Notes under the pieces: model-generated
What the model was told of the DNA's origin: nothing
The model's input: the letters and a program-made list of their open reading frames with translations, nothing else
The model's database searches: none
Made by a program: the position numbers and the translations under genes
Shown here: positions 1 to 10,453 of the stretch, in pieces
Layout: each line of letters opens with the position of its first letter
Position numbering within the stretch: the stretch's first letter is position 1
Source of the DNA: Candidatus Rokuibacteriota bacterium
Lineage (GTDB): Bacteria; Methylomirabilota; Methylomirabilia; Rokubacteriales; CSP1-6
Assembly (NCBI GenBank): GCA_016177555.1
Contig: JACOVB010000194.1
Location: 1 to 10,453 of the forward strand
Reading direction: 5' to 3'
DNA: 10,453 nucleotides

Positions 1-175
1 CGCCGCGCCGGTTGATCTCCTCGATCGCAAGCTGGTGCCCGGCCAACGCCGGCACGCCGTAGATCGCGCCGCCACCTGTCAGCGGATACATCGCACCGAT
101 GCGAATCGGCTCCTGCGCCGGTGCCTCACCGGCGATCAGCACGCCGACGGCCATGAGCATCAGCAATCGCTTCAT
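1..175 (-). CDS. ABC transporter substrate-binding protein, branched-chain amino acid type (N-terminal part)
   Basis: The 58 visible residues begin with a signal peptide: Lys-Arg, a hydrophobic run, and cleavage expected after APA near residue 20. The mature start PIRIGAMYPLTGG is the usual opening of periplasmic binding proteins of the Leu/Ile/Val type (Peripla_BP_6), which capture small amides, amino acids or organic acids outside the membrane and hand them to LivH/LivM/LivG/LivF-type transporters. The ATG at 175 has a good ribosome binding site, GGAGGAG at 183-189, seven bases upstream. The gene runs off the left edge, so ligand-binding residues cannot be seen. It lies downstream of the SMP-30 and tautomerase genes on the same strand, so its substrate may be what those enzymes process (inference). 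Family call is firm; ligand unknown. Confidence 0.85.
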   Translation of the reverse strand, partial: MKRLLMLMAVGVLIAGEAPAQEPIRIGAMYPLTGGGAIYGVPALAGHQLAIEEINRRG

Positions 176-182
176 AAATCGT

Positions 183-189
183 CTCCTCC
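183..189 (-). promoter_or_regulatory. Ribosome binding site of the substrate-binding protein
   Basis: On the minus strand this reads GGAGGAG, seven bases before the ATG at 175. It fixes the start codon and shows that Shine-Dalgarno-led initiation is used by some genes here, in contrast to the apparently leaderless starts at 1657 and 7103. Confidence 0.7.
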
Positions 190-276
190 GCTTTGTGGGT
201 TTCGGTACGGCAGCCGGCCCGACTGCCGCATCCGGACGCGGTCGCTCGCCGTCCGGCGCACTGGAGCCCGACAGGA

Positions 277-369
277 TCATCGGGCAGCCGACCTTGGACC
301 TGGCTTCTGGGCCTCGGCGGCCAGCGGCAGCGCCAGGCGCCCGGCCAGGAGCATCGTCAGCACGCGCAT
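277..369 (-). pseudogene. Signal-peptide fragment of a secreted (substrate-binding-like) protein, probable remnant
   Basis: A 30-codon reading frame encodes a signal-peptide-like segment: Met-Arg-Val, a hydrophobic stretch interrupted by one Arg, then PLAAEAQKPG. LAAEAQ-type endings are typical where a binding protein of an ABC transporter is cleaved. The frame then stops at TGA (277-279). Shifting frame by one base just before the stop opens a frame that runs on, without a stop, into the substrate-binding gene starting at 175. I read this as the 5' end of a decayed gene for an ABC_sub_bind-like protein, or a truncated copy left by recombination. Its ribosome binding site is excellent but sits 13 bases from the ATG. 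It could instead be a real leader peptide or small secreted peptide; confidence is low. Confidence 0.35.
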
Positions 370-3423: not shown

Positions 3424-4242
3424 ATGAGCATCGTGGCCATATCCCAGACCCTCGGCAGCCTGGGCGAGGAGATCGGTCGTCAGCTCGCCCAGACCCTGTC
3501 CTGGCAATGCGCGGACAGGGAGATCATCCTCGAGGCCGCCAGCCGGTTCGGCGAGGGCGTGATGACCCTCGAGCACTTCACGGAGGAGAAGCCGAGCCTC
3601 TGGGAGCGCTTCAGCGACACGCATCACCGGTACCAGACCTTCGTCGAGACCATCATCCTGGAGATGGCGGCGCGCGACAACCTGGTCATCTCGGGCCGCG
3701 GCTCGTCCCTGGTGCTGCGCCGGGTCCGGCACGCGCTGAAGGTCCGGGTCATCGCGCCCGAGCTGCTCCGGGCCCGCCGCATCGAGGTGCGGCAGGGGCT
3801 GACGGCAGAGGCCGCCGAGCACCTCGTGCGGCAGAGCGACCGGGAGCGCGCGGCCCGCCTCAAGTTCCTCTTCCACGTGGACTGGGAGGACCCGCTGCTC
3901 TACGACATGACGCTCAACACCGAGCGCGTGGACGTGGAGGAGGCCTGCCACCTCGTCCGGGAGCTGCTGGTCAGCGAGCGGTTCCGTCCGACGGCCGAGT
4001 CGCTCGCCGAGGTCGGCGACCTGAGTCTGGCCGCGCGCGCCCGCGCCACGCTCATGACGAATCCCGAGACGCGGCGTCTCGCCCTCGGTATCACGTGCCG
4101 GGACGGCTGGCTGACCGTGAGCGGAGGTGTGGACCGGGAGCAGCAGCGGAAGACGGTCGAGGAGGCGCTGGCCGGGATCCCGGGCGCGAGGGGGGTGCAG
4201 AACGAGGTGATCGTGACCGCGCCCGCCATGGCGCGCCTCTAG
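3424..4242 (+). CDS. Cytidylate-kinase-like protein fused to a BON domain
   Basis: A 272-residue two-part protein. Residues 1-185 resemble the cytidylate-kinase-like family (Cytidylate_kin_2): an opening strand SIVAISQ, a phosphate-loop position GSLGEEIG (11-18), then VISGRGSS (88-95) and an Arg-rich lid region (RQSDRERAARLKF, 136-148). The loop has Glu-Glu where a classic P-loop has Gly-Lys, so ordinary nucleotide kinase activity is doubtful; related proteins of this family also deviate here. Residues about 200-264 form a BON domain (LALGITCRDGWLTVSGGV, then VEEALAGIPGARGVQNEVIV), a module found in periplasmic and membrane-associated proteins that bind lipid or other ligands. No signal peptide or membrane segment is present. 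The ATG at 3424 is preceded by GGGAGGTG. Real substrate and role are unknown; it may sense a nucleotide instead of phosphorylating it. Confidence 0.75.
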   Translation: MSIVAISQTLGSLGEEIGRQLAQTLSWQCADREIILEAASRFGEGVMTLEHFTEEKPSLWERFSDTHHRYQTFVETIILEMAARDNLVISGRGSSLVLRRVRHALKVRVIAPELLRARRIEVRQGLTAEAAEHLVRQSDRERAARLKFLFHVDWEDPLLYDMTLNTERVDVEEACHLVRELLVSERFRPTAESLAEVGDLSLAARARATLMTNPETRRLALGITCRDGWLTVSGGVDREQQRKTVEEALAGIPGARGVQNEVIVTAPAMARL

Positions 4243-4404: not shown

Positions 4405-5745
4405 TCAGCGGGCGGGGGGCCGAACGACCACCGTGCGCAGCGTCGACAGGTAGCGTCGGGCCACGCGCTGAACGTCCGCCGGCGTCACCCGCCGCACCGC
4501 CGTCACGTAGCCGTCGAGGAACTCGTGGCCCACGCCTGCCGTCTCGAAGGCGGCCAGGTACCAGGCCTGGCGCGCGTTGGTGCGGCGATCCATCGCCAGG
4601 TTGCCCAGGAGGTACGCCTTGGCGACGCGCAGCTCCTCCTCCGACACCGGCTCCTGCTGGATCCGCCGCAGCTCGCGCAGCAGCGCGGCCTCCGACCTCT
4701 CCAGGTTCTCCGGCGCCGTCCCGATCTGCGCGAGGATGTAGCTCCGGTCCGCGCGCGTGGGGTAGAGGATCCCGGTCGTGTAGGCCAGCCCCTGCTTGTC
4801 GCGTAGCTCCGAGAAGAACCGCCCGGCCATCCCCCCGCCGAGCACCGTGCTGAGCACCTTCACGGCCGCATGGTCGGGGTCCGTGAGCGCCGGTGCGAGC
4901 CCACCTGCCAGGATCTGCGCCTGCGCCCCCGCCACCTCGAGGACTTCCCTGGCGCCGGACGGGACCGGCAGGGCCGCCGGGGAGAGCGGGGGCGCCGGGG
5001 CCGCCTGCGCGCCGCCGAAGAGCCGCTCCGCGTGCGCCGCGACCTCTGGCGCCTTCACGCGGCCGCTGACGGCCAGCACCATCTGCCCCGGCACGTAGTG
5101 GAGGCGGTAATGCGCCCGGAGCGTCACCTGGTCCAGCCGCTCCACGCTCTCCCTGAGGCCAAGCGGATTCCAGGCATAGCCGTGGTCGCCGAAGAGGCGC
5201 GCCGACAGCGCGTCCAGCCCCGCGTCGTAGGGCTTGTCGCCGCGGTTCCGGATCTGCCGCAGGAGGAAGTCGCGCACGGCCCGGGTCGTGCCCTCGTGCA
5301 GCGTCGGGCGGAGCGCGATGTCGGCCACCAGCTCGAGCATCTCGACCCAGTGGCGGGACAGCGCCGTGGCCGCGATCTCCGAGAAGTCCACGTCCCCGTA
5401 GGCGTCGATGCTCCCGCCCATGCGGTCGGCGGCCTCCACGATCTGGCCGCCGTCCAGCCTGGCCGTACCCCGCACCACCATGAGCTGGAGGAGGTTGGAG
5501 ATCCCGGCATTCTCCCGCGTCTCCCAGCGCGTGCCCATGCGCACCCCGAGCGAGATGGCCACCACGGGCGCCGTGGGGTTCTCGCGCGCGAGCACCGTCA
5601 GCCCGTTGGCGAGCCTCACGCGCGCGACGGCCGGCCCCTGCCCCTGCGCTGCCGCCGGCACGGGCCCCAGGAGCGCCAGCAGGGCGAGCAGGATCGTGGC
5701 GACCCGGAGCCCGGGGGGGCGGAGGGGCGGACGGGCCGCGCTCAC
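4405..5745 (-). CDS. M16 peptidase family protein, non-catalytic subunit
   Basis: A 446-residue M16 (pitrilysin-like) protein with a signal peptide: Arg-rich start, hydrophobic run ATILLALLALLG, and likely cleavage near residue 33 after AAA. It has the two-lobe M16 layout. Where the zinc motif HxxEH should stand, the protein reads NLLQL (Asn84, Gln87, Leu88 replace His, Glu, His), so it cannot bind the catalytic zinc. In the C-terminal lobe it keeps the Arg/Tyr pair, Arg315 and Tyr322 in ELRDKQGLAY, which holds the substrate in active/inactive M16 heterodimers. The upstream gene shows the reverse pattern, so the two should form one enzyme in or facing the periplasm. The GTG start at 5745 overlaps the upstream stop by GTGA, with AAAGG four bases before it. 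Substrate is unknown. Confidence 0.88.
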   Translation of the reverse strand: MSAARPPLRPPGLRVATILLALLALLGPVPAAAQGQGPAVARVRLANGLTVLARENPTAPVVAISLGVRMGTRWETRENAGISNLLQLMVVRGTARLDGGQIVEAADRMGGSIDAYGDVDFSEIAATALSRHWVEMLELVADIALRPTLHEGTTRAVRDFLLRQIRNRGDKPYDAGLDALSARLFGDHGYAWNPLGLRESVERLDQVTLRAHYRLHYVPGQMVLAVSGRVKAPEVAAHAERLFGGAQAAPAPPLSPAALPVPSGAREVLEVAGAQAQILAGGLAPALTDPDHAAVKVLSTVLGGGMAGRFFSELRDKQGLAYTTGILYPTRADRSYILAQIGTAPENLERSEAALLRELRRIQQEPVSEEELRVAKAYLLGNLAMDRRTNARQAWYLAAFETAGVGHEFLDGYVTAVRRVTPADVQRVARRYLSTLRTVVVRPPAR

Positions 5746-7103
5746 TGGGCCTTTCTCGGCACGAAGGCCAGCCGCGCGTAGTCAGTGCGGGACAGGAACC
5801 GGCGGGCCGCGTCCCGGATCTGCTCCCGGGTGACCTGCCGGAGCCGCTCCACGTAGCGGAGCTCCTCCTCGAGGGCCCAGGTGGTCTCGGCGATCCCGTA
5901 GGCATTGGCCAGCCCCTCGGAGGTCTCGATCGTGAAGGCGTGCTCGGACTCGGCTCGGGTCAGCGCCCGCACGCGCTCCTCCTCCGTGGGCCCGCTCTCC
6001 TGCATCTTCCCGATCTCCTCCAGGACGATCTCCTCGACCCGCGAGAGGTCCTTCGCCTCCAGCTCCGCCCTGAGGCTCACGATGCCCCCACCCATGAGCG
6101 CGGCGTAGCTCATGCTGATGCTCGAGACGAGCCGCTCCTCGTCACGGAGCCGGCGGGCGAGCCGCGAGCTCTCCGCGCCCGCCAGGATCGAGGCGAGCAG
6201 GTCCACCGCGAAGCCGTCCGTGTCGTCCGCCCGCGGCGCCGTCCACCCGAGCGCCAGGTGGGCCTGCTGCTCCGGGCGCTCGACCTGGCGCCGCACGCCG
6301 CCCGCGAGGGGGCGCGGCGGCGGCAGGGGCGCCGGACGGTAGCCCGAGGCGGGCGCCCGGCCGAAGGTCCGTGCCACCGAGGCGCGCACCGCTCGGGGAT
6401 CCACGGGGCCCGCCACCACCACCGACATGTTCTCCGGCGTGTAGTAGCGGCGGTTGTACTCCTTCAGGCGCTCGCGGGTGGCGGCGGTCATCGTCTCGCG
6501 GGCTCCGAGCACCGGGCGGCCGTAGGGATGGCCGTCGAAGACGAGGCCGTAGAGCTGGCGCACAATGGCGGTCCTGGGATTGTCGGCCTCGATGCGGGCC
6601 TCCTCGAAGATCACCTCGCGCTCGCGCGCGATCTCCTCGGGATCGAAGGTGGAGCGGAAGGCCATGTCGGCCAGCAGCTCGATGGCCGTGTCCATGGCCT
6701 CGGAGGGGACGACGATGTAGAAGGTCGTGTAGTCGAACGAGGTGACCGCGTTGGAGCGGCCGCCGACCCCCTCCACCGCGCGGTCGATGTGCCCGGGACC
6801 CCACCTGTCCGTGCCCTTGAAGAGCATGTGCTCCTGGAAGTGGGAGTAGCCCAGCTCGTCGGGCCGCTCGTAGCGGACCCCGACCCCGACCCAGAGGTAC
6901 ACGGCCACGATGTCGGCGGCGCGGTGGTCCTGGATGATGAGGCGGAGCCCGTTGGGCAGGACCTCGCGGGTCGGGGAGGGGAGGTCGTCCTCGCTGCCGG
7001 CCGGTCGGGGAATCACCGTCGCCCGGGGCGTCAGCGTGCCGCAGCCGGCGGCCAGCGCCATGAGCGCGATCCCCCCGAGGGCCATGCCCCAGCTCCGGGC
7101 CAT
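5742..7103 (-). CDS. M16 zinc peptidase, catalytic subunit, probable lipoprotein
   Basis: A 453-residue M16 zinc metallopeptidase. The motif HxxEH is intact (His88, Glu91, His92 in SHFQEHM), and a distal zinc ligand is expected at Glu168 (IFEEARIEADNP). The N-terminus is a short signal peptide ending in LAAGC, so Cys21 is probably lipidated and the enzyme anchored to a membrane facing the periplasm; Ala at -3 makes the lipobox slightly atypical. In the C-terminal lobe Arg320 remains, but the Tyr seven residues later in the partner is Ser327 here. Catalysis and substrate gripping thus appear split between this protein and the next gene. I chose the ATG at 7103 over in-frame starts 3 and 26 codons upstream because it gives a clean lipoprotein signal and lies seven bases after a perfect TATAAT. 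Likely substrates are peptides or unfolded proteins. Confidence 0.9.
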   Translation of the reverse strand: MARSWGMALGGIALMALAAGCGTLTPRATVIPRPAGSEDDLPSPTREVLPNGLRLIIQDHRAADIVAVYLWVGVGVRYERPDELGYSHFQEHMLFKGTDRWGPGHIDRAVEGVGGRSNAVTSFDYTTFYIVVPSEAMDTAIELLADMAFRSTFDPEEIAREREVIFEEARIEADNPRTAIVRQLYGLVFDGHPYGRPVLGARETMTAATRERLKEYNRRYYTPENMSVVVAGPVDPRAVRASVARTFGRAPASGYRPAPLPPPRPLAGGVRRQVERPEQQAHLALGWTAPRADDTDGFAVDLLASILAGAESSRLARRLRDEERLVSSISMSYAALMGGGIVSLRAELEAKDLSRVEEIVLEEIGKMQESGPTEEERVRALTRAESEHAFTIETSEGLANAYGIAETTWALEEELRYVERLRQVTREQIRDAARRFLSRTDYARLAFVPRKAQ

Positions 7104-7116: not shown

Positions 7117-7140
7117 CAGGGGGCTTCGCGCGGGACTCGT

Positions 7141-8169
7141 TCAGACGGGGATGCAGGCGCCGGAGATGGCCCCCGCCTCATCGGAGGCGAGGTATGCCAC
7201 CACCCCTGCGACGGCGTCAGTCGAGACCCACGCCGAGCGATCCGCGCGCGGCATCGCAGCTCGGTTGGCGGGGGTGTCCATGGTGCCTGGGAGCACCGCG
7301 TTCACCGCGATGCCGCGTCCCTTTCCCTCCTCGGCCAGGGCCTGGGTGAGCGTGATGACGGCGGCCTTGGCCACCGTGTAGGCGATGAAGCCCCCCGCGG
7401 GCGGCACGACCGCGCGCGAGGCGATGTTGACGATCCGCCCGTGGCCCGCCGCGAGCATGGGCGGGAGCACCGCGCGGCACCCCACCACCGCCGAGATGAG
7501 GTTGAGCCGCAGCATGTGCTCCCACTCGGGGAGGGGGGTCGAGGCGAGGTCGCCCCCGGCGAAGCCTCCCACCGCATTGACGAGGATGTCCACTCGGTGG
7601 TGACGCTCGAGGACGCCGGCGACGAAGGCTGCGAGCGGCGTCTCGTCGCTCAGGTCGGCCGGGGCCGCGTGCAGCCGGGCGCGCTCCGCCTCCCCGAGGC
7701 GGCGGCGCAGCGCTTCGAGCCCCTCGGCTCCGCGGTGCGGGACGCAGACGGTGGCTCCGGCCTCGAGGAGCCGCCTGCAGATCGACTGTCCGAGCGCCCC
7801 CGCGCCCCCCGTCACCACCGCCACGCGGCCGGCGAAGGACACGGACGCCCGTGCGAGGCGGTCCGCGCGCGCCGCAGGCTCGGCGGCGAGGGCGTCCAGC
7901 CGGGCCGCCAGCGCGAAGTCGCTCGCCGTGATCCCCCCGGCCTCGTGGGTGATGAGGTCCACCGTCACCCGGTTGTAGGCGTTGGACCAGTCGGGGTGAT
8001 GACCCAGGGCCTCGGCCTCGTGGGCCGCCGCCGTCATGAAGGCGAAGGCGTCGACGAAGTCCCGGAAGGTGAAGACACGGTGGAGCCCTTGGTCGAGGGC
8101 GGTCCACCCGGGGAGGGTCGCGAGCCGCCGGGCGATCTCGCTCTGGCTGAGCCGCTCGGGTCGAGCCAC
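7141..8169 (-). CDS. Fusion of pterin-4a-carbinolamine dehydratase (PCD) and dihydropteridine-reductase-like SDR
   Basis: A 342-residue fusion. Residues 1-95 are a PCD domain with every position of the active-site pattern: Glu53, His57-His58-Pro59 (ALGHHPDW), Tyr65, His75 (THEAGGIT) and Asp84. PCD removes water from 4a-hydroxytetrahydropterin made by aromatic amino acid hydroxylases. Residues about 112-342 are a short-chain dehydrogenase: nucleotide loop TGGAGALG (120-127), Asn223, and the triad Ser251, Tyr264, Lys268. The SDR half has NAVGGFAGG in place of the usual NNAG, and AVLPGTMDTPANRAAMP near its end. Both resemble, from memory, dihydropteridine reductase (AGGWAGG; AVLPVTLDTPMNRKSMP), which reduces the quinonoid product of PCD. 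Together the halves would regenerate tetrahydropterin; this is inference. The GTG start lies 12 bases after the ParB-like stop, without a clear ribosome binding site. A generic SDR with another substrate remains possible. Confidence 0.85.
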   Translation of the reverse strand: MARPERLSQSEIARRLATLPGWTALDQGLHRVFTFRDFVDAFAFMTAAAHEAEALGHHPDWSNAYNRVTVDLITHEAGGITASDFALAARLDALAAEPAARADRLARASVSFAGRVAVVTGGAGALGQSICRRLLEAGATVCVPHRGAEGLEALRRRLGEAERARLHAAPADLSDETPLAAFVAGVLERHHRVDILVNAVGGFAGGDLASTPLPEWEHMLRLNLISAVVGCRAVLPPMLAAGHGRIVNIASRAVVPPAGGFIAYTVAKAAVITLTQALAEEGKGRGIAVNAVLPGTMDTPANRAAMPRADRSAWVSTDAVAGVVAYLASDEAGAISGACIPV

Positions 8170-8181
8170 GGCGGGCGGTTC

Positions 8182-9102
8182 TCAGGATGGGGCGGGCGCA
8201 GCCATCAGGCCTGCACGCTGGATGTCTTCGTAGCGGACGCGGCTCACGTCGAACGACTCCAGGTTCTCGTTGAGCTTCTTGAAGGTCTGGTCGAAGCTCG
8301 GCAGCATCTTGCGCTGGCGGGTGAGCGGGGTGGTGCGCGCGAGCACGAAGTTCTTCACGTAGGGGTGGCTGATGCCGCGCTTCTTGAGCCGGGCCACGAC
8401 CCCGGCGAGAGCCTCGTCCGCCTCCGCGACGCGCGCGGCGCGCTCTTCCCGCTCCGCCAGCGTCTTCGGGAACGTCCCCTTGAGGAACCTGTCCACGCGC
8501 CGGAGGATCGGGGCGAAGGCGCCGCCCGAGAAGCGCTTGTTCTGCTCGTAGAGCAGCCCCAGCGTGATGAAGTGAGCCGCCTCGAACTGGAAGGCGTACT
8601 CCTCCTCCCCGCTCCTGGGCTCTGCGCCCACGAGCCCCCGGTACATCCGGACCACCTCCAGCGACTTCTCCTTGAGGTTATGCGCCTTCTCGGTGTTCAG
8701 CGCGAGGATCTGGAAGGCCACCTCGGCCTCGGGCACGAGGATGGCGGGGATCATCTTCGCCTTGAGCTTCTCGAGCGCGGCCCGGCGGTGGTTGCCGTTG
8801 GGTGTCCAGTACACGCCGGGCCTCGGGGACATGGCGACGATGGGGTCCACGAAGCGGTCGAGCTTCCTGACGACCGCCTGAAGCCGCTTGACGTGGGTGG
8901 GGGAGAGGTCGCGCTGGTAGGGGGTGGCCTCCACCTTGCCCATGGGGAGCAGGCAGAAGATCTGCCAGTGCGCGCCCACCGGGTCGCGATAGAGGGCCAG
9001 CGCCCGGCCGCCGTCCGTCTCCACCTGCTCGGCGAGGGCCTGCGCCTGCTTCGAGGGGGCTTCGTCGGGATGGACGACCCACCGGGGCATGACGAGACCC
9101 AT
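8182..9102 (-). CDS. ParB N-terminal-fold protein of unknown role
   Basis: A 306-residue protein with a ParB/sulfiredoxin-like nuclease or CTPase fold in residues about 48-125. The PYQRDLSPTHVKRL segment (61-74) matches the conserved Q-R box, and NGNHRRAALEKLK (102-114) corresponds to the GERRxRA-type nucleotide box, with GNHRR instead of GERR. The rest is largely helical and charged: 139-160, then a Lys/Arg-rich region 212-280 that may bind DNA or RNA. No helix-turn-helix of chromosomal ParB is recognised and no ParA gene is adjacent, so chromosome or plasmid partition is unlikely. It precedes the pterin-enzyme fusion by 12 bases and should share its transcript. An alternative ATG at 9090 lies ten bases after CATAAT (9101-9106), so the true start may be Met5. 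Function unknown. Confidence 0.7.
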   Translation of the reverse strand: MGLVMPRWVVHPDEAPSKQAQALAEQVETDGGRALALYRDPVGAHWQIFCLLPMGKVEATPYQRDLSPTHVKRLQAVVRKLDRFVDPIVAMSPRPGVYWTPNGNHRRAALEKLKAKMIPAILVPEAEVAFQILALNTEKAHNLKEKSLEVVRMYRGLVGAEPRSGEEEYAFQFEAAHFITLGLLYEQNKRFSGGAFAPILRRVDRFLKGTFPKTLAEREERAARVAEADEALAGVVARLKKRGISHPYVKNFVLARTTPLTRQRKMLPSFDQTFKKLNENLESFDVSRVRYEDIQRAGLMAAPAPS

Positions 9103-9356: not shown

Positions 9357-10346
9357 TCAGGCCGGCGCGGTCCGGCGCCGGGCCAGGCGGCGCGCGATGG
9401 CTTCCCGGAGGCTGCCGTAGATGCCCGCCGGCAGGAAGATGATGCAGAGGATCAGGACCAGCCCGTAGATCGTCTCGGCCATGCCGATGAACTTGAGGCC
9501 GAAGAGCACGCGGAGGTACTCGGACAGCGCGATGGTGAGCGCGCTGCCGATGGTGGGGCCCAGCAGCGAGTACATGCCGCCCAGGACCACGGCGAACACG
9601 ATCCGGAGCGACACCCCGATGCCGGAGAGCGTGTCGGGGTTCACGTAGGTGAAGTACTGGGCGTAGAGGACGCCGCCCACGGCGGTCAGCGCCGCCGAGA
9701 GCACGGTGATGGCGAGCTTGAAGCGCGTGACGTGGATGCCCACCGACGCGGCCGCTCCCTCGTCCTCCCCGATGGCTTCCAGCGCCGAGCGCGCCATGCT
9801 CCGGTCCACGCGGCGCCACACCCAGAGCCCGCCGAGCCACAGGGCCACGGAGGCGTAGTAGAAGACGCGTTTGTCCGCGAACTGGATGGCGGCGAGGCTC
9901 GCCTCGCCTGCTGACGCCTTGAGCGTGACGCCCAGCGAGCCGCCCGTCCAGTCGCGCTCGGCGATGACGAGGAGCCGGACCACCTCGCCCACCGCGAGCG
10001 TCACGAGGGCGAAGTAGTGGCCCACCACGCGGAAGCGGAAGCACGGATAGCCGAGCACCAGCCCGATCACCACGGCGCCCGCCACGGCCACGAGCACCCC
10101 CAGCCACGGCGTGAGGCCCCAGACGTTCCAGAGGAGCGTGGTGGTGTAGGCGCCGGCGCCCAGGAAGGCGCCGTGGCCGAGGGAGATCAGCCCGAAGCGC
10201 CCCATGAGAGACCACGCCCCACCGATGAACGACCAGATGAAGATCTGTACCAGGACGTGGAGCGCGTACTGGCGCATGCCGCCCATGGGCAGGAAGGGGG
10301 CGACGGCGATGATGGCGAGGACGGCGGCGGCGGGGAGTCGCGCCAC
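9357..10346 (-). CDS. livM: Branched-chain amino acid ABC transporter permease, LivM type
   Basis: An integral membrane permease of the LivM family, about 329 residues. Hydrophobic segments fill most of the length, for example 10-22, 33-50, 83-102, 112-130, 164-180, 212-232, 250-275 and 294-310. Family signatures are present: SLGHGAFLGAGAYT (57-70, counted from the 10352 start) and the cytoplasmic loop AIGEDEGAAASVGI (193-206), which contacts the ATPase subunits. The C-terminus is a basic tail after LPAGIYG. I prefer the GTG at 10346, five bases after GGGAG; a GTG two codons earlier (10352) would give a GTGA overlap with the LivH-like stop. With LivH upstream it forms the membrane channel of a Leu/Ile/Val, urea or amide importer. 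The ATPases and binding protein are outside the window. Confidence 0.9.
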   Translation of the reverse strand: MARLPAAAVLAIIAVAPFLPMGGMRQYALHVLVQIFIWSFIGGAWSLMGRFGLISLGHGAFLGAGAYTTTLLWNVWGLTPWLGVLVAVAGAVVIGLVLGYPCFRFRVVGHYFALVTLAVGEVVRLLVIAERDWTGGSLGVTLKASAGEASLAAIQFADKRVFYYASVALWLGGLWVWRRVDRSMARSALEAIGEDEGAAASVGIHVTRFKLAITVLSAALTAVGGVLYAQYFTYVNPDTLSGIGVSLRIVFAVVLGGMYSLLGPTIGSALTIALSEYLRVLFGLKFIGMAETIYGLVLILCIIFLPAGIYGSLREAIARRLARRRTAPA

Positions 10347-10348
10347 GG

Positions 10349-10453
10349 TCACTCCCGCTTCGCGAGGATGCCGCCCGGGCGCGCGAACATCATCACGATG
10401 AACAGCACGAAGGCGATCACGTAGCCCATCTCGGTGGACATCATGACGCCGCC
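10349..10453 (-). CDS. livH: Branched-chain amino acid ABC transporter permease, LivH type (C-terminal part)
   Basis: Only the last 34 residues are in the window: a final membrane helix (MGYVIAFVLFIVMMFARP) followed by GGILAKRE. The FxRPxGIL-type ending right after a helix is characteristic of LivH permeases. The stop abuts the LivM-type gene (two bases before its preferred GTG, or overlapping by GTGA if 10352 is used). The two form the heterodimeric channel of the importer. Identification rests on a short piece but is supported by its position. Confidence 0.75.
   Translation of the reverse strand, partial: GGVMMSTEMGYVIAFVLFIVMMFARPGGILAKRE

What the first reader, a model, noticed from the sequence alone, without database searches (positions are those of the whole stretch)
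7141..8169. PCD fused to a dihydropteridine-reductase-like dehydrogenase: a one-protein pterin recycling enzyme?
The N-terminal domain has the full PCD active-site pattern (Glu53, His57, His58, Pro59, Tyr65, His75, Asp84). The C-terminal SDR has NAVGGFAGG and AVLPGTMDTPANRAAMP, close to motifs I recall in animal dihydropteridine reductase, including DTPxNRxxMPxAD. In animals PCD and DHPR act one after the other to restore tetrahydrobiopterin. A fusion would pass the unstable quinonoid intermediate from one site to the other. I know of no described enzyme of this architecture.
Basis: partly seen in the sequence, partly recalled or inferred. Interest (0 to 1): 0.8.

Follow-up and report, generated by a model that had tools for sequence, protein, structure and literature searches.

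The report
Fused pterin dehydratase and DHPR-like dehydrogenase
An uncultured bacterium makes one protein that joins an intact pterin dehydratase to a dehydrogenase resembling the animal enzyme for the next recycling step, which hints at an undiscovered pterin cycle in bacteria without the usual pterin-using hydroxylases.

Summary
It is no assembly error: six fusion clusters, all 342 aa, form one clade, and 3 of 95 Methylomirabilota genomes carry the fusion. In 8 more the two genes are separate neighbours (4-nt overlap in 5 of 8). Other Rokubacteria have the SDR at the same place without PCD, so PCD was inserted and later fused.

The SDR half shares animal DHPR's signature residues and is human DHPR's best match in 10 of 10 genomes tested. 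It is not a DHPR orthologue: it lies outside the DHPR clade, is about 25% identical, and keeps the catalytic Ser that DHPR lacks. Aromatic amino acid hydroxylases (PF00351) were found in 0 of 95 genomes, PCD in 77. The fusion genomes carry a GTP cyclohydrolase/PTPS/PTPS/SDR/glycosyltransferase cluster, so a non-folate tetrahydropterin is plausible.

Best reading: a one-protein pterin recycler for a cycle not based on phenylalanine hydroxylase (0.45). Main rival: a working PCD joined opportunistically to an SDR with another substrate (0.38). New architecture of known families.

The parts
7141..8169 (-). PCD-SDR fusion ORF, 342 aa, GTG start at 8169, stop TGA 7143-7141
   Evidence: same length in six clusters
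7888..8154 (-). PCD (Pterin_4a) domain, residues 6-94
   Evidence: Pfam PF01329, 110 bits
7918..8013 (-). PCD active-site stretch E53..H57-H58-P59..Y65..H75..D84
   Evidence: pattern match residues 53-84
7834..7887 (-). linker, residues 95-112; lowest model confidence (mean pLDDT 55 at residues 101-110)
7144..7833 (-). SDR domain, residues 113-342
   Evidence: Pfam PF00106/PF13561; structural matches within residues 103-342
7366..7419 (-). SDR catalytic residues Ser251, Tyr264, Lys268
   Evidence: alignment
7228..7278 (-). DHPR-shared motif DTPxNRxxMPxADxxxW, residues 298-314
8182..9102 (-). upstream ParB-like gene, stop 12 nt before the fusion's start; conserved neighbour of the SDR across Rokubacteria
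   Evidence: no Pfam or NCBIfam match; the ParB likeness is my reading, from no tool
5742..7103 (-). downstream M16 peptidase, same strand
4405..5745 (-). second M16 peptidase
9357..10352 (-). LivM-type permease, upstream in the conserved order LivM - ParB-like - (PCD) - SDR

Best explanation
It is a bifunctional pterin-recycling protein. The N-terminal PCD dehydrates a 4a-hydroxytetrahydropterin to a quinonoid dihydropterin (inferred from the family and the intact active site). The C-terminal SDR, from the broad prokaryotic SDR group that resembles animal DHPR, reduces that dihydropterin with NAD(P)H back to the tetrahydro form (inferred). The pterin would come from the FolE-PTPS-PTPS-SDR cluster in the same genomes (cluster shown, product inferred). 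The enzyme that makes the carbinolamine is unknown and is not a PF00351 aromatic amino acid hydroxylase. Shown: one ORF, intact residues of both domains, one clade of fusions derived from neighbouring genes, retention across species. Not shown: either activity, the cofactor, or any channelling.
For: PCD active-site pattern intact; the fused PCD is the only PCD found in G001, G002 and G092. It shares GGxGALG, GG[FW]AGG and TxDTPxNRxxMPxADxxxW with 5 DHPRs. PCD lies next to this SDR in the 11 genomes whose SDR is 58% or more identical to the window's, fused in 3, with a 4-nt overlap in 5 of the 8 separate pairs. Six fusion clusters of identical length. A pair of neighbouring PTPS genes in 15 of 15 genomes searched, standing with FolE, an SDR and a glycosyltransferase in the six loci inspected. 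PCD in 77 of 95 genomes with PF00351 in none.
Against: SDR outside the DHPR clade; fusions only 24-26% identical to human DHPR, no closer than other members of the group, and several plasmid-borne relatives are closer (up to 32%). Catalytic Ser kept; Ala in 5 of 5 DHPRs. The Asp after the second strand of DHPR is not conserved. In 25 of 29 ParB-like loci the SDR follows directly without PCD, so its function predates the PCD. PCD presence and SDR-orthologue presence are not associated across 95 genomes (38/44 against 39/51, Fisher p 0.30). The SDR is fused to a glycoside hydrolase in G003, and reads on into one in G004, so fusion at this locus is weak evidence of shared chemistry. Of the plasmid relatives with the motif, L180, L181, L184 and L188 sit among acyl-CoA or aromatic catabolism genes. 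Listed structural matches are FabG-type and other carbonyl-reducing SDRs.
Confidence: 0.45

Rival explanations
1. Opportunistic fusion: the PCD half is a working PCD serving molybdopterin or general pterin upkeep, and the SDR half keeps an older, unrelated carbonyl/alcohol oxidoreductase function; the two were joined because their reading frames already overlapped.
For: Classical Ser-Tyr-Lys residues; PCD-less orthologues at the same locus, 10 of the 29 ParB-like genes overlapping the SDR by 4 nt; SDR-glycoside hydrolase fusion at the same locus in a sister lineage and an enoyl-CoA hydratase-PCD fusion elsewhere; MoaA in 14 of 15 genomes; a PCD role in Moco metabolism is listed in PMC3223725 (table passage seen).
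Against: The partner is the most DHPR-like SDR of each genome tested, unlikely for a randomly hit SDR; PCD adjacency kept in the 11 genomes whose SDR is 58% or more identical.
Confidence: 0.38
2. The PCD half is structural only: like DCoH it oligomerises and stabilises the SDR, without pterin chemistry.
For: Vertebrate PCD/DCoH has a second, non-enzymatic role (recalled); PCD is also found fused to an unrelated enzyme.
Against: Active-site residues conserved in six of six fusions.
Confidence: 0.1
3. Assembly or frameshift artefact of two overlapping genes.
For: In 5 of 8 relatives with separate genes the two overlap by 4 nt, so a small indel could join them.
Against: Identical 342-aa fusions in six clusters and three genomes; single clade 100/99.
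Confidence: 0.02

Closest known systems
Pterin-4a-carbinolamine dehydratase (PF01329, COG2154, PhhB)
   Same: domain and active-site pattern intact
   Different: usually a stand-alone protein of about 100 aa (recalled; so in the unfused relatives here); here fused to an SDR, in a phylum where no PF00351 hydroxylase was found
Quinonoid dihydropteridine reductase (QDPR; PDB 1hdr, 1dhr, 1ooe, 3orf)
   Same: GGxGALG, GG[FW]AGG, DTPxNRxxMPxADxxxW, YxxxK
   Different: 24-26% identity to human, separate clade, Ser instead of Ala at the catalytic position, no Asp after the second strand
Bacterial SDRs of NCBIfam NF004201/NF004204 (named FabG)
   Same: best profile matches of the SDR half (200.7 and 155.1 bits)
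   Different: below the curated cut-offs (288, 352); function of this group not established here
PTR1/FolM/PruA pteridine reductases
   Same: SDR family, pterin-reducing (passages)
   Different: their TGX3RXG motif is absent; the fusion has TGGAGALG
PhhA-PhhB-PhhC (phenylalanine hydroxylase-PCD-aminotransferase) operon of Pseudomonas aeruginosa
   Same: PCD in a gene cluster (passages of PMC1173090)
   Different: no PF00351 hydroxylase in 95 genomes

Membership tests
PCD (PF01329/COG2154) | Pfam gathering score | tested here: met
   110 bits against 26
PCD (PF01329/COG2154) | active-site pattern [EDKH]x3H[HN][PCS]x5-6[YWF]x9[HW]x8-15D (pattern recalled) | tested here: met
   residues 53-84; 38 of 40 PCD rows of that call fit
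PCD (PF01329/COG2154) | dehydratase activity | not testable with these tools
   needs an assay
Quinonoid dihydropteridine reductase | falls within the DHPR clade | tested here: not met
   5 DHPRs form one clade 100/100 without the fusion; where that clade attaches is unresolved, long branch
Quinonoid dihydropteridine reductase | signature GGxGALG, GG[FW]AGG, DTPxNRxxMPxADxxxW | tested here: met
   but much of it is also in a wider prokaryotic group
Quinonoid dihydropteridine reductase | Ala in place of the catalytic Ser | tested here: not met
   Ser251; Ala in 5 of 5 DHPRs
Quinonoid dihydropteridine reductase | Asp after the second strand (role in NADH choice recalled) | tested here: not met
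   VCVPHR against VASVDV
Quinonoid dihydropteridine reductase | reciprocal best genome match | tested here: inconclusive
   human DHPR's best match is this SDR in 10 of 10 genomes; the reverse was not run against a DHPR-bearing genome
Quinonoid dihydropteridine reductase | qBH2 reductase activity | not testable with these tools
   needs an assay
Quinonoid dihydropteridine reductase | nearest solved fold | tested here: inconclusive
PTR1/FolM pteridine reductase | TGX3RXG motif (passages of PMC1971073 and PMC13259868) | tested here: not met
   TGGAGALG, residues 120-127
FabG, NCBIfam NF004201 | curated cut-off 288 bits | tested here: not met
   200.7 bits

The most novel reading that the evidence does not exclude
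The first one-protein PCD-plus-DHPR-type tetrahydropterin recycler, serving an unrecognised pterin-dependent oxygenase cycle in Methylomirabilota, where no PF00351 aromatic amino acid hydroxylase was found but a FolE-PTPS-PTPS-SDR-glycosyltransferase cluster is present. By extension, the wide 'FabG-like' SDR group with DTPxNRxxMPxADxxxW would be a hidden prokaryotic pool of pterin reductases from which animal DHPR descends.
Probability: 0.3. Interest if true: 0.78.

Novelty: new variant of a known kind. Interest (0 to 1): 0.5.

Why it matters
If the SDR half reduces dihydropterins, this is a natural fusion of two consecutive recycling enzymes, gives a function to a large group of SDRs now called FabG, and says that pterin-4a-carbinolamines are made in bacteria by an oxygenase nobody has named. 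PCD in 77 of 95 genomes with a PF00351 hydroxylase in 0 of 95 raises the question of what bacterial PCDs do without phenylalanine hydroxylase; the fusion makes it directly testable with one protein. If the SDR half has another substrate, it is still a traceable case of gene insertion followed by fusion.

Tried and rejected
Sequencing-error reading: rejected (six same-length fusion clusters, three genomes). Plus-strand reading of 7141-8169: only a stop-free frame. Orthodox phenylalanine-hydroxylase cycle: rejected for this phylum (0 of 95; of the 14 control genomes Caulobacter rings), with the caveat that completeness of these genomes is not stated and many are draft metagenome assemblies. Alkylglycerol-monooxygenase-type use: PF04116 was not found in the three fusion genomes and was found in 9 of the 15 searched, so no support. 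PCD/SDR co-occurrence across 95 genomes: no association (I read presence by eye from the tables, counting the SDR orthologue at E 6e-58 or better; G012 at 1.9e-50 was counted as without). Fold search for a DHPR match: none among the rows shown, inconclusive. The alignment A3 used for the model was flawed: of its 36 rows L110 was taken on the wrong strand and the PCD rows L109 and L112 were misaligned (seen), so the PCD half of the model rests on six fusion rows; the prediction was not repeated. Window RNA families: none at gathering scores. Papers: the rows listed by searches named no PCD-SDR fusion; three of these listed only part of their hits (12 of 65, 15 of 141, 8 of 47), the library lacks most subscription journals, and the key COG2154 paper (PMC2287330) is not held. 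I read passages only of PMC3223725, PMC9737128, PMC13259868, PMC1971073 and PMC1173090. Placing DHPR inside a named bacterial lineage: not possible, its branch is long and its place unresolved. PCD relatives outside the phylum were not sampled, so an outside origin of the linked PCD is untested.

Full report
WHAT IS THERE. The finding's coordinates hold one minus-strand ORF, 8169 to 7141, GTG start, 342 aa. Pfam gives Pterin_4a over residues 6-94 and adh_short over 115-305, both far above cut-off. The named PCD residues and the two SDR motifs are present where stated. The predicted structure has mean pLDDT 89 with a weak linker at residues 101-110; 3 of the 36 rows of its alignment were faulty, so I use it only for the overall domain layout.

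IS IT REAL. The protein database holds six fusion clusters, the window's own included, all 342 aa, 75-100% identical; the other 114 of the 120 rows listed are stand-alone SDRs of 221-235 aa (3555 hits, best 120 shown). A search with the PCD half alone among proteins of 188-598 aa gave 7 hits: these six and one enoyl-CoA hydratase-PCD fusion. In 95 genomes of the phylum of Rokubacteria GWC2_70_16 (Methylomirabilota; that GTDB name is recalled and also stands in record titles), 3 carry the fusion: G001, G002 and G092. The window ORF's DNA is found letter for letter in G092. The six fusions are one clade (100/99).

HOW IT AROSE. In Rokubacteria the order LivM - ParB-like - SDR is conserved. Of 29 ParB-like genes called in the 80 loci, the next gene is a PCD-less SDR in 25 (one a partial call), the fusion in 1, a PCD in 2 and another call in 1; 10 of the 29 overlap the SDR by 4 nt. 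Within those 80 loci a PCD lies beside the SDR in 5: two fusions and G003, G004, G005. Five further genomes, G065, G067, G068, G069 and G075, have PCD and SDR as separate neighbours. Between the separate genes there is a 4-nt overlap in 5 of 8 (those five genomes), 1 nt in G003, 101 nt in G005 and 271 nt in G004. These 11 genomes are exactly those whose SDR is 58% or more identical to the window's. In the 27 other SDR-bearing genomes that have a PCD, it is on a different contig from the SDR. In the SDR tree the linked SDRs, the fusions and eight database relatives whose neighbours I could not see form a clade (99/96) apart from the PCD-less ones (99/98). In the PCD tree (40 rows; other-locus PCDs sampled, not complete) the linked PCDs group with the G086 PCD, which also follows the ParB-like gene, and with the hydratase-fused PCD, apart from the other-locus PCDs of the phylum (99/98). 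Most simply, PCD was inserted here once and fused once.

PTERIN CONTEXT. PF00351 hydroxylases: 0 of 95; PCD: 77 of 95. PTPS: 15 of 15 genomes searched, each with a neighbouring pair. In six inspected loci (G001, G002, G003, G057, G065, G092) the pair stands with GTP cyclohydrolase I, an SDR, a glycosyltransferase and MoaE-type and IscA-like genes. Pfam scans cover the G092 cluster except its IscA-like and TilS-like genes, the glycosyltransferase of G057, and the FolE of G003 and G065; the rest I name by their like sequences. In both loci printed, one PTPS keeps a Cys-x3-HGH motif and the other lacks the Cys. This makes a dedicated, perhaps glycosylated, tetrahydropterin plausible (inference); folate, queuosine and Moco uses of these genes are not excluded. 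MoaA is in 14 of 15.

COUNTER-EVIDENCE. The same SDR is fused to an MGH1-like glycoside hydrolase in G003 (1090 aa, Pfam-scanned) and reads on into a like protein in G004, so this locus fuses genes readily. PCD and SDR-orthologue presence are not associated (p 0.30). Of ten plasmid regions read, four with the motif have acyl-CoA or aromatic catabolism neighbours; no PCD or phenylalanine hydroxylase is named in any of the ten, though those gene tables are incomplete.

VERDICT. A genuine, conserved, new domain architecture. The PCD half is a PCD by every test available. The SDR half plausibly works like a DHPR but fails membership on three tested points. Pterin recycling without phenylalanine hydroxylase is my best reading at 0.45; opportunistic fusion to an SDR of other function is close behind at 0.38.

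Noticed in passing
L194:5520-7097 (-), also L193, L195, L196: GTP cyclohydrolase I (FolE) of about 525 aa interrupted by an intein-like insert: LAGLIDADG_3 over cut-off in L194 and barely in L195, Intein_splicing below cut-off in both; L193 and L196 judged by length and likeness. L197 is insert-free by Pfam, L198 by length.
   Followed up: partly
L194:3630-8899 and counterparts L193, L195-L198: Conserved cluster glycosyltransferase - PTPS - PTPS - FolE - SDR - IscA-like - MoaD/E - TilS-like, suggesting a dedicated, perhaps glycosylated, tetrahydropterin.
   Followed up: partly
L003:229-3501, L004:3007-4809: In a sister lineage the SDR runs directly into an MGH1-like glycoside hydrolase (1090 aa in L003), losing its last residues.
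   Followed up: partly
P0123: Enoyl-CoA hydratase-PCD fusion of 438 aa.
   Followed up: partly
window 8182-9102 (-): ParB-like protein (my reading) without Pfam or NCBIfam match, followed directly by the SDR in 26 of 29 loci, one of them the fusion.
   Followed up: partly
window 3424-4242 (+): Cytidylate kinase-like domain joined to a BON domain.
   Followed up: no
window 2-280 (-): Start of what reads like a LivK-type periplasmic protein at the window's low end, besides the LivM gene at the high end; no family scan was run on it.
   Followed up: no
L148 (G086), S9 peptidase at 7128-9086: In G086 the ParB-like gene and a PCD are followed by an S9 peptidase in place of the SDR.
   Followed up: no
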